A stretch of 41,196 nt of DNA. Origin: Bacteroidota bacterium (GTDB lineage: Bacteria; Bacteroidota; Bacteroidia; Bacteroidales; JAIFNL01). The translations under genes and the position numbers were made by a program. Where the stretch lies: positions 1-41,196 of the forward strand of contig JAIFNL010000032.1 in assembly GCA_020047755.1 (NCBI GenBank), given 5' to 3'. This document shows positions 22,503 to 27,652 of the stretch, piece by piece. Positions within the stretch are counted from its first letter, which is position 1. Each line of letters starts with the position of its first letter. The notes under the pieces were generated by a model. It saw nothing but the letters and a program-made list of their open reading frames with translations. It was not told the DNA's origin and searched no databases.

Positions 22503-22540
22503 TTAATAATCAATCGAATATAAGTTCGGTTGATTATTAA
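22503..22540 (+). terminator. Hairpin after speA
   Basis: 16-bp stem TTAATAATCAATCGAA / TTCGGTTGATTATTAA (one mismatch) with a 6-nt loop, 8 nt past the speA stop. It would separate speA from the nuclease-like gene that begins at 22559. Confidence 0.7.
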
Positions 22541-22558: not shown

Positions 22559-23071
22559 ATGAGAGTAAAACAAAATTTCAAACAGTACGAAGCTTATAAC
22601 AAGCAGACGCACAATCATATATACTTCAATCACGAAACGGGAGGCTACATTGTTGTAAACAAAAGGCATGGGCATATTGAGGTGCAACAAAACTTAATAA
22701 TTGCCAAAATTCTTGCCGATTTGGGCGAAGAGGTTGAGCTTTTGGAAGATATTCCAAACCTAAAAACCCCAGATGCCAAACGAAATAGCGATTTTTGGGA
22801 ATTTAAAACCATCAGCAAAGCCAAAAATGTAAGTCGTGCAATAGAAACTGCAATTAGAAATGCAAAAAAACAGGCTCACAATATCTTGCTTTTTATAAAT
22901 CAAAAGCATAGAATAGCCGATGTGCGCTATGGAATTTTTTTAGCCTTAGAAAATAAAAAACTAGGAAATATAAAAAAAATTGATGTTATGTTTGCCAATA
23001 AAACAATAATTAACTTAAAAAGAAATGAGCTAACTGATTATAAGTTAGCTCAAAAGTTTAAAGGAAGTTAG
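22559..23071 (+). CDS. CdiA-C / BECR-type nuclease-like protein
   Basis: A 170-residue basic protein that resembles the tRNase domain at the C-terminus of contact-dependent inhibition toxins (CdiA_C) and standalone homologues. Recognisable pieces are the opening IYFNHETGGYIVVNK, LADLGEEVELLEDIPN, the PDAKRNSDFWEFKT stretch with the acidic/basic active-site residues, and AIRNAKKQAHNILLFINQ. There is no secretion signal, no fused delivery domain and no immunity gene of plausible size next to it. It interrupts the speA-speB order and is bounded by hairpins at 22503-22540 and 23060-23096. The family call is by motif pattern; catalytic activity is inferred. Confidence 0.68.
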   Translation: MRVKQNFKQYEAYNKQTHNHIYFNHETGGYIVVNKRHGHIEVQQNLIIAKILADLGEEVELLEDIPNLKTPDAKRNSDFWEFKTISKAKNVSRAIETAIRNAKKQAHNILLFINQKHRIADVRYGIFLALENKKLGNIKKIDVMFANKTIINLKRNELTDYKLAQKFKGS

Positions 23072-23096
23072 ATAACAAGTACCCAGAGCTTCCTTT
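23060..23096 (+). terminator. Stem-loop at the end of the nuclease-like gene
   Basis: 8-bp stem AAAGGAAG / CTTCCTTT enclosing the stop codon, with a 21-nt loop. A modest terminator candidate without a T run. Confidence 0.4.
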
Positions 23097-23237
23097 ATGT
23101 TGCTGCCATCCGCAGACGACGAAATCATATTAAATGATATAAAAAATATTTTTTATGACTACAAAAGTACGTATCTTTTTTTAGTTTTCAAAATTTAGAA
23201 TAGATTTTTTTTAGAAAAAAAATAAAAATATAAAATT

Positions 23238-24128: not shown

Positions 24129-27038
24129 ATGACGGATTTGACAAAAGAACAAGAGCTTCAAAAAATAGCAGAATTACCCGAAACCGAAGAAAAATACAAT
24201 CTTCTGAAAGCGTATATCAACGAATATGAGGATTTTACAGCATATATTTTTTTAGGATATACTTGTGTAAATATAGAAAAATATGACGAAGCTCGCTTGT
24301 ATTATGAATTATTTATTGAAAAAAATCCAACTAATAAAGAATTACTTGCTATAGCTTATAATAATTTAGCTAATCTTTTGCAAAATGTTTATACTGAATA
24401 TAAATTAGCTCAGCAATATTATGAAAAAGCTATCGAACTAAATCCTGAATTTGCTGATGCTTATAATAATTTAGCAGGTTTATATCAATTAAACTCTATA
24501 AAAAAATTTGATTTAGCAAAGATTAATCTCGAAAAAGCAATTAAAATAAACAACAATTATCGTTATTACAGTAATTTAGCTTTTTTATTATCAAATGATT
24601 ATTTCAAAGAATTTGCTTTAGCTCGAAAATATTTTGAAAAATCGATTAGGTTAAATTCTAATTATTCAGAGGCATATTTTAATTTTGCTCTTCTTTTAGA
24701 AAATGATTATTTTAAAGAATATGATTTAGCAAAAAAGTATTATGAGAAAGCTATTGAATTGAATCCAGACTATTTAAGTGCTAATAATAATTTAGCCAAC
24801 CTGTTACAGAAAGATTATTTTAAAGAATATGAATCATCTAAAAAAATTTATGAAAAATCATTAGAAATACACCCTAACGATGTTATAACTTGTTATAATT
24901 ATGCTAATTTATTAAAAATAGAATATTTCAAAAAATATGATTCCGCTCGAAAATATTTTGAGAAAGCTATTGAGCTAAATCCTGAATTTACAGATGCTTA
25001 TAATAATTTAGCAAATCTTTTAGCTAATGATAATTTTAAAGAGTACGATTTAGCTCGAAAATACTATGAAAAAGCAATTGATTTAAATCCTGATTATGCA
25101 GATGCTTATCTTAATTTAGCAATTATTTTGCAAAATGATTATTTCAAAGAATACGATTTAGCACGAAAATATTATGAAAAGGCAATTGAATTAAATCCTG
25201 ACTATGCAGATGCTTATAATAATTTATCAAATCTTTTGAAAAATTATTTTAAAGAATATGATTTGGCAAAATTCTTTTTTAAAGTATATGAAAAAGCTCT
25301 TGATTTTCAAAATCTTCATTTAAAATATTTAATTTTATACAATAACCAATTTTCATTATCCGAAATTTTCAAACTAAATAATGAAGAATTTACAATTCGT
25401 TTGTTTGAAAATATTTTAACTATCCAAAATGAAGATGTTATTGGTTTTGTGAAAAAAAGTGTAGAAACGAACAACAACGGTTTTATAATCAATTTATTCG
25501 GAAAACATGAAAGTCAATTAAAAACATTGAATTTTCTAAGAACTCAAATTGAAACCAGTATCAAAACCAACGAATTCAATTTTGTTTCATTAGAGCAAAA
25601 TAAAGAAAATCAAAAAAACTGCACCCGTTTTTTTTATTACGAAAATAACTTTATTGATTTTGAAAAATTAATAGAAACCAAATTTTTAGCAAAAAATATT
25701 TTTGCAACACCTACCGGAACAGAAATTCCGGTAGAAAATTTGCTCAAATACATAGGTGCCGAAAACGAAAAGCCCGATGTAGAATGGAAAGGTAGCCAAT
25801 TTATTACGCAAATTGAGATTGAGAATTTTAAAATCTTCTCCAAAATAAAAGCAAATTTTGCTCCCGACATCAATATTTTGGTTGGAAGGAACGGATTGGG
25901 TAAAACTTCTTTTTTACAGGCACTTACACTTGGGCTTTTGCCTTCAAATAATGAAGACAAATCCAATGAATTTGATAAATACATACACCTTAATTCGAGC
26001 AAATCGGATATTGTTTTGAAATGGGAAAACGAAAAGAAAACCGTGTATGTTTTTAAAAATGAACTGAGAAATGCAAATTATGTAGCCTTGCCGCAAAAAT
26101 TGCTGCTCGCTTACGGTGTAAACTTAAATACCGAAGAAAAACTTTCGCATTCCGAAATTATTGACCAATTAATTAAAGGAAATGGCTTGCCTTATTCTAC
26201 AAAGTCAATATTTAAAGACTATTCGAAGGATTTTTACGACCCGATTATTTTATTAGAACGTTTGTTTTTAGAAAAAAGAGGAAAACGAAATAAGTTGATT
26301 GATAGTATTATTCGTGTTGTTTTCGATACCTTGAATAGTTATTTGCAACTTTTTTCGCAACCCGAAAATATTCGATTAGAAAGCGATTATGCCGATTTTT
26401 ATTATGTCGATTTCAATAATAATAAACTAAAAACCAACAATTTAAGCGAAGGATACAAAGATTTTATTTTGCAAATTACCGATATAGTTGTTAAAATAAT
26501 TGCCTCGCGAAATGCTTCTTTTGAGCAGGAGGAAATGGAAATTTCGGCTAAACTTTTGAAACAAGTCAAAGGGCTTATTGTGATTGACGAATTTGACAGG
26601 CATCTTCACCCCGAATTGCAAAGAAGGTTTCTGACTCAGTTGAAAGATGATTTTCAAAATATTCAGTTCATTTTAAGCACTCACAATATTTTTTCGGTTC
26701 AGTCAGCCGAAGGAAATACCGCTTTAATTATTCATGCAAGCCAAGGCAAATTGGAAATTACAACCCAAGAAATAAAAAAAGGGCTAAGCATCGAAAGTAT
26801 TTATAATTTATTTTTTGAAGGAAATAGTAGTTTTTTTGGCTACGAAACTGAACTTTTATTAAAAACATTCAAAAATTACATAGATAAACAACGCAAAGAA
26901 GAATTAACAACCAAAGAAGAAAAGGAGTTTAAAAATACAACTAAAAAGCTATTGGAATACAGCCAAGAAATACAAGCGACGGTAACAAGAGAAATACGGC
27001 AATTTGAACGACTAACCGGAAAAACTGTCAAATTATGA
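24129..27038 (+). CDS. TPR-fused Septu-like (PtuA-type) AAA ATPase
   Basis: A 969-residue two-part protein. Residues 40-400 hold about nine 36-residue TPR units with the repeated core YYEKAIELNPDYADAYNNLA, so near-identical that the DNA itself is a 108-bp tandem repeat. The ATPase follows a variable linker: start FITQIEIENFKIFSKI, Walker A GRNGLGKT (586-593), signature NLSEGYK (about 772-776), Walker B VIDEFDRHLHP (D820, E821), and the switch STHNIF. A helical tail follows. It overlaps the HNH gene by 4 nt (ATGA). PtuA-PtuB (Septu) pairs an ATPase with an HNH nuclease for phage defence, and retron Ec78 uses the same pair. The large TPR fusion is unusual and may act as the sensor or oligomer scaffold. 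Confidence 0.85.
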   Translation: MTDLTKEQELQKIAELPETEEKYNLLKAYINEYEDFTAYIFLGYTCVNIEKYDEARLYYELFIEKNPTNKELLAIAYNNLANLLQNVYTEYKLAQQYYEKAIELNPEFADAYNNLAGLYQLNSIKKFDLAKINLEKAIKINNNYRYYSNLAFLLSNDYFKEFALARKYFEKSIRLNSNYSEAYFNFALLLENDYFKEYDLAKKYYEKAIELNPDYLSANNNLANLLQKDYFKEYESSKKIYEKSLEIHPNDVITCYNYANLLKIEYFKKYDSARKYFEKAIELNPEFTDAYNNLANLLANDNFKEYDLARKYYEKAIDLNPDYADAYLNLAIILQNDYFKEYDLARKYYEKAIELNPDYADAYNNLSNLLKNYFKEYDLAKFFFKVYEKALDFQNLHLKYLILYNNQFSLSEIFKLNNEEFTIRLFENILTIQNEDVIGFVKKSVETNNNGFIINLFGKHESQLKTLNFLRTQIETSIKTNEFNFVSLEQNKENQKNCTRFFYYENNFIDFEKLIETKFLAKNIFATPTGTEIPVENLLKYIGAENEKPDVEWKGSQFITQIEIENFKIFSKIKANFAPDINILVGRNGLGKTSFLQALTLGLLPSNNEDKSNEFDKYIHLNSSKSDIVLKWENEKKTVYVFKNELRNANYVALPQKLLLAYGVNLNTEEKLSHSEIIDQLIKGNGLPYSTKSIFKDYSKDFYDPIILLERLFLEKRGKRNKLIDSIIRVVFDTLNSYLQLFSQPENIRLESDYADFYYVDFNNNKLKTNNLSEGYKDFILQITDIVVKIIASRNASFEQEEMEISAKLLKQVKGLIVIDEFDRHLHPELQRRFLTQLKDDFQNIQFILSTHNIFSVQSAEGNTALIIHASQGKLEITTQEIKKGLSIESIYNLFFEGNSSFFGYETELLLKTFKNYIDKQRKEELTTKEEKEFKNTTKKLLEYSQEIQATVTREIRQFERLTGKTVKL

Positions 27039-27652
27039 ATAAAATAGATAGAAATAAGGTTGAAAAACCCGAATGTCTCAAACAAAAATCAGTAGCTTGG
27101 ACAAAAGAATATATTGAAAAACGAAAATCGAAACCAAATTATTGGAATTGGCACGAGTACAACAAGGAAAAGGTAGCGATTATTTTGACCGAAAAATTAT
27201 CATTACTTACAAAATATCACTGTTCATATTGTGGCTTTTATCCTTTGAAAGAAAACCTTGGCAGTAGAAGTATCGACCATTTCAAGCCCAAATCGAAATT
27301 TCCCGATTTGGCTTTTGATTGGGAAAATTTATTTATATCTTGTTCCGATTGCCAAAAAAATAAGGCAAGTGCTTTTCCCGATTGCGGAGCTATAAAACCC
27401 GACGAGCCAGATTATAATTTCGATTATTGGTTTGAAATAGATTGGAGCATTCAAAAAAACTACATTATTCCCAACAAAGACAGAACCCGCACAGAACAAG
27501 AGATTGCTCAAAATACAATCGATTGGTTGGGCTTGAATAAAGGCGAAAGACCACAAGCCCGATTTGAAGAACTCGAAAAATACAAAAGTAATTCGATAAA
27601 AGACCTTTGGCAATGGTCGTATCCGTATTTTTTAGAACGGGGAGAAAATTAA
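27035..27652 (+). CDS. PtuB-like HNH endonuclease
   Basis: A 205-residue HNH nuclease that would be the effector of the TPR-ATPase system. The zinc/HNH core is complete: HCSYCGFYPL (C63, C66), RSIDHFKPKSKFP (D81, H82), WENLFISCSDCQKNK (N98, C103, C106). This arrangement is that of PtuB and of the HNH partner of retron Ec78. The N-terminal KIDRNKVEKPECL is also typical of that family. Translation is coupled to the ATPase by the ATGA overlap. The pair as a whole is AT-richer than the neighbouring speB and DHS-like genes, which fits acquisition. Confidence 0.87.
   Translation: MNKIDRNKVEKPECLKQKSVAWTKEYIEKRKSKPNYWNWHEYNKEKVAIILTEKLSLLTKYHCSYCGFYPLKENLGSRSIDHFKPKSKFPDLAFDWENLFISCSDCQKNKASAFPDCGAIKPDEPDYNFDYWFEIDWSIQKNYIIPNKDRTRTEQEIAQNTIDWLGLNKGERPQARFEELEKYKSNSIKDLWQWSYPYFLERGEN

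What the first reader, a model, noticed from the sequence alone, without database searches (positions are those of the whole stretch)
22559..23071. Standalone CdiA-C/BECR-like nuclease without immunity gene
The protein resembles the tRNase tip of contact-dependent toxins but has no delivery domain and no neighbouring immunity protein. It could be a defence effector kept silent until triggered, a remnant of a polymorphic toxin cassette, or an enzyme with a new role.
Basis: partly seen in the sequence, partly recalled or inferred. Interest (0 to 1): 0.5.

Follow-up and report, generated by a model that had tools for sequence, protein, structure and literature searches.

The report
Nuclease toxin with convergent RNA antitoxin
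A small bacterial gene encodes what looks like an intact RNA-cutting toxin of a kind that phages carry on their head proteins, and in the place where a protective protein is usually found there is instead a predicted small structured RNA on the opposite strand, which may be the antidote.

Summary
The ORF at 22559-23071 is real: 170 aa, Pfam PF18451 CdiA_C. It is not BECR. AlphaFold2 gives a PD-(D/E)XK core, and the only significant solved match is 4g6v_A, the Bp1026b CdiA-CT tRNase. The acid, D, ExK and Q positions are intact. Its best viral match is the C-terminal domain of a phage MuF head protein.

No immunity ORF was found. On the opposite strand, overlapping the stop codon, lies a predicted small RNA with its own Bacteroidota-type promoter. 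Among dereplicated standalone and MuF-linked CdiA_C genes, 49 of 50 carry this antisense -7 box; of MuF genes without a C-terminal domain, 1 of 17. Compensatory changes and G-U pairs put the RNA on the minus strand. An orphan copy without a toxin exists. MuF toxins with a second, RNase-like domain (LPD3) have differently shaped RNAs there. Rhs-type CdiA_C genes and papain-like MuFs have small protein genes beside them instead.

Best explanation: a toxin with an RNA antitoxin, derived from a phage polymorphic toxin. Structure and strand of the RNA are well supported across the family; neutralisation is inferred and untested. The window's own RNA is divergent and is not recognised by the phage RNA model.

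The parts
22559..23071 (+). standalone CdiA_C-family nuclease (170 aa), predicted PD-(D/E)XK fold
   Evidence: ORF; PF18451; AlphaFold2 pLDDT 92.5, pTM 0.87, core H42-54 E58-61 E73-75 E78-85 H91-102 E108-113; 4g6v_A Foldseek E 8.8e-5, VIA Z 11.6
22679..22681 (+). codon of E41, the helix acid; in the family an acid sits here or 4 residues later
   Evidence: acid at W41 or W45 in 42 of 46 rows (2 of the other 4 have gaps there)
22772..22774 (+). codon of D72, predicted catalytic, aligned with the D of the PD motif of 4g6v
   Evidence: D 38, E 7 of 46
22799..22807 (+). codons of E81-F82-K83, the ExK motif
   Evidence: E or D 44 of 46; K 39 of 46
22871..22873 (+). codon of Q105
   Evidence: Q 41 of 46
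23162..23191 (-). Bacteroidota-type promoter TTG-N19-TACTTTTG of the antisense RNA (-7 box 23162-23169, -33 TTG 23189-23191)
   Evidence: controls; the consensus itself is recalled
23050..23155 (-). predicted antisense small RNA; 5' end inferred from the promoter, 3' end from hairpin and T-rich stretch
   Evidence: z -3.1; core 23072-23125 identical at 50 of 54 positions in G001, coding part 399 of 500
23105..23120 (-). hairpin GUCGUC-UGCG-GAUGGC with UGCG tetraloop, same letters in G001
   Evidence: sequence; it is the MFE form of G001. The MFE of the window copy pairs this stretch differently
23059..23097 (-). 3' hairpin over the toxin stop codon; inner stem UGGGUA/UAUCUA, in G001 UGGACA/UGUCUA (U-A to C-G, G-U to A-U)
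22503..22540 (+). inverted repeat between nspC and the toxin gene, terminator-like

Best explanation
The ORF is an intact metal-dependent PD-(D/E)XK ribonuclease, most likely a tRNase, that descends from the C-terminal toxin of a phage MuF head protein and now sits alone in the chromosome. Its antidote is a small structured RNA transcribed convergently from its own housekeeping-type promoter just behind the toxin gene, ending across the toxin's stop codon. In Bacteroidota and their phages this RNA takes the place of the immunity protein for RNase-type MuF toxins. Most likely mechanism: the hairpin RNA binds the nuclease and blocks it (type III-like toxin-antitoxin, 'RNA immunity'), possibly as a substrate mimic; in addition the 3' overlap could let it pair with the toxin mRNA. 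Shown by computation: fold, active-site conservation, kinship with phage MuF ends, promoter, and the structure and strand of the RNA in the family and its association with the toxin domain. Inferred: RNase activity, transcription of the RNA, neutralisation, protein binding, and the hosts of the viral contigs.
For: Fold: AlphaFold2 pLDDT 92.5; 4g6v_A is the only PDB match at E <= 0.001, Z 11.6 over 120 residues with the next row at Z 6.0; profile match to 4g6v_A E 3.6e-5. Phage kinship: L080 is MuF plus this domain; four of the seven BFVD matches at E <= 0.001 are called minor capsid protein and one a MuF fusion. RNA: an antisense -7 box within 150 nt of the stop in 18 of 18 standalone or MuF-linked members against 31 of 227 other genes in the same loci; strict -33/-7 in 14 of 18 against 6 of 227. 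Dereplicated wider set: CdiA_C 49 of 50, MuF without C-terminal domain 1 of 17. Fold energy lower on the minus strand in 41 of 47, 1 equal; G-U 159 of 1283 pairs in minus folds, 67 of 1166 in plus folds; z below -2 in 44 of 47. Covariation on a structure-free alignment of 13 selected RNAs: 7 of 8 pairs changed on both sides, score 0.728 against 0.222 shuffled, 0 of 500. Orphan RNA copy with promoter-like and terminator-like sequence but no toxin in G204. Swap with protein immunity: four CdiA_C genes of the Rhs type (one seen only as an 84-aa fragment) have no antisense box and each a conserved 77-79 aa ORF starting at -13 to +7 nt.
Against: No experiment or transcript data. The phage RNA model R1 recognises neither the window's RNA nor G001's nor anything in 14 further phage loci, so kinship of the window's RNA with the phage hairpin rests on position, promoter and a shared tetraloop. 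In the window both strands fold equally well (-24.1 and -24.2). G001 has the -7 box but no strict -33/-7; strict promoters are 34 of 50 in the wide set. One CdiA_C locus (L145) lacks the box, and Peternella_1 (weak CdiA_C, E 2e-4) lacks it. Two MuF genes without a C-terminal domain (L154, L165) have a -7 box at 17 nt, just outside the counted range. A convergent RNA overlapping the 3' end would also be expected of a type I antisense RNA.
Confidence: 0.62

Rival explanations
1. Type I antitoxin: the convergent RNA acts only as antisense RNA, pairing with the 3' end of the toxin mRNA and promoting its decay, as RatA/txpA or SR6/yonT in Bacillus prophages. It would not neutralise toxin protein.
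For: Convergent position with the last hairpin at or across the stop codon in the RNAs read. SR6 is a 100-nt antisense RNA overlapping the 3' end of a prophage toxin gene (PMC5848175, abstract start in the listing).
Against: The 5' hairpin lies outside the overlap with the ORF and is kept by compensatory changes; an orphan copy has no adjacent target gene; the RNA shape differs by toxin class; MuF genes without a C-terminal domain mostly lack it.
Confidence: 0.22
2. The element is only a 3'-end processing or termination signal, or an unrelated phage small RNA, and the standalone protein is harmless because it is not expressed or not toxic.
For: Hairpins next to stop codons are common (recalled); no transcript evidence; by eye no strict promoter lies directly upstream of the toxin gene.
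Against: A dedicated -33/-7 promoter pointing at the hairpins in 34 of 50 dereplicated CdiA_C flanks; the -7 box is absent from 22 of 23 MuF flanks with no C-terminal domain, an ART, a peptidase-like or an unassigned end (three further unassigned ends do have it). W-G001 conservation of the RNA core exceeds that of the coding sequence.
Confidence: 0.12
3. A dead remnant of a phage toxin cassette with no present role.
For: No MuF gene of this kind was found in the window's genome by the A5 search; one related locus (G204, L039) is a decayed prophage in which most of the MuF part is gone.
Against: Open frame in two genomes at 79% protein identity with all predicted catalytic residues kept; standalone forms at two further places in G058, one of them a tandem pair.
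Confidence: 0.04
4. A defence effector that cooperates with the neighbouring Septu-like genes.
For: PtuA- and PtuB-like genes lie about 1.1 kb downstream, and similar genes follow speB in G001 by eye.
Against: I recognised no Septu genes by eye beside the standalone relatives in G058 (not scanned with profiles); the toxin-RNA pair recurs in phages.
Confidence: 0.08

Closest known systems
CdiA-CT Bp1026b (PDB 4g6v; cd13442)
   Same: Same predicted fold and aligned catalytic acids; Foldseek E 8.8e-5, Z 11.6, 20% identity. Described as PD-(D/E)XK with tRNA substrate, Mg cofactor and active site E187, D214, D223, K242 (PMC9086364, passages).
   Different: No CdiA/CdiB delivery and no CdiI protein; ExK motif instead of D with a later lysine; convergent RNA.
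MuF polymorphic toxins of temperate phages
   Same: The domain is the C-terminus of MuF proteins in phages; cd13442 is reported among MuF toxin domains (PMC5576092, passages).
   Different: Here standalone in the chromosome; [quoted passage not shown]
Type III toxin-antitoxin (ToxIN, CptIN, TenpIN, AvcID)
   Same: Protein toxin with an RNA antitoxin (PMC8860590 and PMC10511110, abstract starts in the listing; the other names recalled).
   Different: Type III RNAs are usually upstream, co-directional and repetitive (recalled); here convergent, downstream, with its own promoter and another toxin fold.
Type I toxin-antitoxin with 3' overlapping antisense RNA (txpA/RatA, bsrG/SR4, yonT/SR6)
   Same: Convergent small RNA overlapping the 3' end of a prophage toxin gene (PMC5848175, listing; others recalled).
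   Different: Those toxins are small membrane peptides (recalled); here a nuclease, with a conserved RNA structure and an orphan RNA copy.

Membership tests
CdiA_C (PF18451), Bp1026b-type PD-(D/E)XK CdiA-CT | Profile match above the curated cut-off | tested here: met
   40.5 bits against 26.6
[quoted passage not shown]
   4g6v_A
CdiA_C (PF18451), Bp1026b-type PD-(D/E)XK CdiA-CT | catalytic acids and lysine present | tested here: met
   E41, D72, E81, K83 present
CdiA_C (PF18451), Bp1026b-type PD-(D/E)XK CdiA-CT | tRNase activity | not testable with these tools
   needs biochemistry
BECR superfamily | BECR fold of the window protein | tested here: not met
   The model has the PD-(D/E)XK core and a clear best match to a PD-(D/E)XK toxin, Z 11.6 with the next row at 6.0
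CDI system | CdiA/CdiB delivery genes and CdiI | tested here: not met
   170-aa ORF alone between nspC and speB
MuF polymorphic toxin | MuF domain fused in front | tested here: not met
   absent in the window protein; present in phage relatives
Type III toxin-antitoxin | RNA antitoxin that binds and inhibits the toxin protein | not testable with these tools
   RNA predicted only
Type III toxin-antitoxin | RNA gene upstream and co-directional with the toxin (feature recalled) | tested here: not met
   RNA is downstream and convergent
Type I toxin-antitoxin | antisense RNA overlapping the toxin transcript | tested here: inconclusive
   overlap of the stop codon predicted; pairing in vivo unknown

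The most novel reading that the evidence does not exclude
RNA immunity for polymorphic toxins: in Bacteroidota phages and their domesticated descendants, RNase-type MuF toxins of two unrelated folds (PD-(D/E)XK CdiA_C, and the possibly BECR-like LPD3) are neutralised by class-specific structured RNAs encoded convergently in the slot where other MuF or Rhs toxins keep an immunity protein. When the toxin domain escapes the phage, as in this window, it takes its RNA along and becomes a new kind of RNA-controlled toxin-antitoxin module.
Probability: 0.55. Interest if true: 0.9.

Novelty: new variant of a known kind. Interest (0 to 1): 0.82.

Why it matters
The immunity determinants of polymorphic toxins that I know of are proteins (recalled). 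An RNA doing this job would explain why tRNase-type MuF toxins in Bacteroidota phages seem to lack an immunity gene, would give a route by which phage weapons become chromosomal toxin-antitoxin modules, and can be tested directly with small plasmids in laboratory E. coli.

Tried and rejected
BECR fold for the window protein: rejected. Rfam: nothing near a gathering score in the window region at E <= 5, and in nine loci only one ordinary tRNA in L039. A fixed DNA motif ACAAGT...TTGCTGCCAT as marker of the element: 46 of 295 class genomes matched, but apart from the window, G001 and L039 the matches look unrelated by eye, so I dropped it. A tRNA mimic: one RNA (L127) contains a T-arm-like stretch, but ARAGORN finds no tRNA in 14 loci; left as speculation. 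R1 on 390 genomes of the phylum: 12 genomes and 16 places matched; of the 13 places I read only the two in G204 look real. The R1 hit in L178 lies inside the next gene: chance. PBECR2 as a further RNA-linked class: L175 has a -7 box without -33, but the similar-looking L220 has none, so not claimed. W's RNA as a small protein gene: a 27-codon frame in W lacks a start in G001. W's RNA elsewhere: 0 exact matches of a 21-base core in viral contigs and only short matches at E 0.1 or weaker in the rows shown for phages and plasmids.

Caveats on counts. In one search the group 'LPD3/other-nuclease?' (14 of 14) was partly chosen after the RNAs had been seen: nine members have an LPD3 match in Pfam, three of those below the cut-off; L102, a near twin of L100, was not scanned; L175 is PBECR2; L115, L123 and L127 are unassigned. 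Unassigned ends as a whole are 3 with and 3 without the box (L118, L131, L144). L106 was counted as CdiA_C below Pfam's cut-off. 'Peptidase-like' (L148, L159) and 'papain-like' are my readings; Pfam gave no such match for L148 and L159. Four ORFs cut by the locus end (L126, L143, L146, L156) were left out. Members are related: the 18 form about 11 clusters by my reading. G037's gene is cut by the contig end, so whether it is standalone is unknown. A8 holds 13 of the 47 CdiA_C RNAs, chosen because they align without structure. One search counts boxes at 21-150 nt, at 1-150 nt. The top VIA rows of the LPD3 model are RNases, but with Z 5.0 or less and no Foldseek match at E <= 0.001: suggestive only.

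Full report
The ORF. The ORF listing gives a 170-aa ORF at 22559-23071 on the + strand. Pfam matches it to PF18451 CdiA_C at 40.5 bits; NCBIfam, PADLOC and a direct PDB sequence search give nothing. It lies between an nspC-like decarboxylase and an agmatinase, and a PtuA/PtuB (Septu-like) pair follows the agmatinase. A second genome of the genus has the same order with a 79% identical protein; its record in the genome collection is named as a Paludibacter-labelled metagenome assembly. A third genome of the genus has neither this gene nor nspC in its 82% complete assembly. In G007 nspC and a speB-like gene are neighbours 108 nt apart without it, so the gene looks like an insertion in this lineage.

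Fold. [quoted passage not shown] The only PDB match at E <= 0.001 is 4g6v_A, with Z 11.6, rmsd 3.2 over 120 residues and the next row at Z 6.0. The same chain is the best hit of the family profile (E 3.6e-5). The review places 4g6v (Bp1026b) in the PD-(D/E)XK group with a tRNA substrate and treats BECR toxins as another group. The acid, D, ExK and Q positions are largely kept across 46 members; the helix acid sits either at W41 or at W45, one turn apart.

Where it comes from. Of 198 genomes of the order 10, and of 395 of the phylum 9, have PF18451 matches. By my reading they fall into standalone genes, C-termini of phage MuF proteins, Rhs/YD-type proteins and a few others. The viral contig L080 carries a 453-aa MuF protein whose end aligns with window residues 9-170, linker included. 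Of seven BFVD structural matches at E <= 0.001, four are called minor capsid protein, one MuF fusion, one CDI toxin-like and one tRNA nuclease CdiA C-terminal. The simplest reading is that the window gene is a MuF toxin module that lost its head-protein part. G204 shows such a loss: a 136-aa ORF that joins a scrap of MuF to the toxin domain inside what looks like a decayed prophage.

What stands in the immunity place. Reading the 3' flanks I noticed, antisense and 44-147 nt behind the stop, a Bacteroidota -7 box TAnnTTTG (consensus recalled), then hairpins, the last at or across the stop codon. The box is present within 150 nt in 18 of 18 standalone or MuF-linked members (genomes of the window's class, and viral contigs whose hosts are inferred) and in 31 of 227 other genes of the same loci. 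With a TTG 18-22 nt upstream it is 14 of 18 against 6 of 227, and 0 of 67 for control genes followed in tandem after a gap of 60 nt or more. The other eight members examined have no box within 150 nt: four of the Rhs type, G480, G247 and G509 (same phylum, other classes), and viral L081, which has one at 263 nt.

Control with other MuF genes. I fetched 80 viral and 13 genomic MuF loci, read 87 of the 93 by motif (four cut ORFs then left out) and added five of the other six by hand; the sixth, L171, has no box. After dereplicating the 3' flanks together with 15 of the 18 members above (three are the same contigs), the box lies at 21-150 nt in 49 of 50 CdiA_C flanks (strict 34), in 1 of 17 MuF genes without a C-terminal domain (two more have it at 17 nt), in 0 of 1 ART, 0 of 2 peptidase-like and 0 of 3 unassigned ones. 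In a mixed group of LPD3, PBECR2 and three unassigned domains it is 14 of 14, but that group was partly put together after seeing the RNAs. Fisher's test for CdiA_C against MuF without a domain gives p 2.5e-13, without correction for relatedness.

The RNA. The 47 distinct CdiA_C RNAs fold better on the minus than on the plus strand in 41 cases, 1 equal. G-U pairs make up 159 of 1283 pairs in the minus folds and 67 of 1166 in the plus folds, and 44 of 47 have z below -2 against 60 dinucleotide shuffles each. A common form is a two-part stem with a small internal loop, often with a UGCG, UUCG or UACG loop, followed by a terminator-like hairpin. On a structure-free MAFFT alignment of 13 of them, 7 of 8 pairs show changes on both sides and 95% of cells pair; the covariation score is 0.728 against 0.222 in shuffles, reached by 0 of 500. 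The model R1 built from it finds, besides its own 13, L095 weakly (E 0.26), one chance hit in L178, and a second copy in G204 with promoter-like and terminator-like sequence but no toxin gene beside it, like an orphan immunity gene. R1 misses most of the other CdiA_C RNAs.

The window's own RNA. The strict promoter lies at 23162-23191 on the minus strand. The core 23072-23125 is identical to G001 at 50 of 54 positions, against 80% in the coding part and 73-81% in the flanks. The inner stem of its 3' hairpin changes from U-A to C-G and from G-U to A-U between the two genomes, and pairs fully only on the minus strand. Against this: R1 does not recognise it, both strands of the window copy fold equally well, and G001 lacks the strict -33. 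So the window's RNA is a divergent one whose kinship with the phage RNAs rests on position, promoter and a UGCG hairpin that is the predicted form in G001 but not in the window copy.

Swap with proteins. The four Rhs-type CdiA_C genes (L038, L040, L041 and the fragment in L042) are each followed, starting at -13 to +7 nt, by a conserved 77-79 aa ORF on the same strand; L037 has a 152-aa and L044 a 62-aa ORF at +2. MuFs with a papain-like end (my reading) of Bacteroides phage p00 and relatives (the hankyphage group, name recalled) have a convergent 83-99 aa ORF near the place of the RNA. The ART MuF L119 and L118 also have short convergent ORFs, which I did not test further. Among 14 further phage records, the two clear CdiA_C ones (MT835523 and Elizabethkingia phage TCUEAP3) and two LPD3-like ones (by eye) have the antisense box and a hairpin RNA. 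Peternella_1, with a weak CdiA_C end, has no box but two small ORFs behind it. The other nine have no box. R1 matches none of the 14.

LPD3. Its AlphaFold2 model (pLDDT 93.5) has no Foldseek match at E <= 0.001. The top VIA rows are colicin D, BrnT, a CDI toxin complex chain, MqsR or its complex, and RelE, all at Z 5.0 or less. That suggests a BECR-like RNase without proving it. If right, two unrelated RNase folds share the RNA arrangement.

Literature. My searches for RNA antitoxin with polymorphic toxin and prophage, type III toxin-antitoxin with RNA antitoxin (84), MuF toxin with small RNA (100), RNA immunity terms (101) and contact-dependent inhibition with antisense RNA (140) listed no paper on RNA immunity for MuF or CDI toxins among the titles and abstract starts shown; only open-licence papers are held there. 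PMC5576092 was read in passages, PMC9086364 in passages, PMC11699363 in outline and abstract.

Conclusion. The protein is an apparently intact, phage-related PD-(D/E)XK nuclease, and the missing immunity gene is plausibly an RNA. The RNA as a structured, strand-specific element tied to the toxin domain is well supported by computation across the family; its action as antitoxin is inferred, and the choice between protein binding and antisense pairing is open.

Noticed in passing
window 24129-27652: Septu-like pair between speB and a deoxyhypusine synthase-like gene: a 969-aa PtuA-like protein with a long N-terminal TPR array, and PtuB HNH. In G001 a 585-aa ATPase-like ORF, a PtuB-like ORF and a separate 660-aa TPR ORF follow speB.
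   Followed up: no
L039 7870-7970: Orphan copy of the antisense RNA with promoter-like and terminator-like sequence but no toxin gene, about 2.5 kb from the toxin-linked copy in G204.
   Followed up: partly
L178 3' of 2523; L223; L224; L176: LPD3-type MuF toxins have RNAs with a similar inner hairpin around GGATT-RYA-GTTCC; L178 has two units in tandem.
   Followed up: partly
L222 3860-4159; L229 3860-4111; L228 3450-3734; L225 3376-3639: Convergent small ORFs behind papain-like MuF ends of Bacteroides phage p00 and relatives, possible protein immunity.
   Followed up: partly
L038, L040, L041, L042 just 3' of the Rhs-type CdiA_C gene: Conserved 77-79 aa cysteine-rich ORF, probable immunity protein of Rhs-type CdiA_C toxins.
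   Followed up: no
L127 4649-4780: Antisense RNA behind a MuF gene with an unassigned end contains a tRNA T-arm-like stretch; the next gene looks like a serine recombinase by eye.
   Followed up: partly
L029 3533-3997 and 4303-4779: Tandem pair of standalone CdiA_C genes with identical C-terminal parts and differing N-terminal parts, each with its own antisense box.
   Followed up: no
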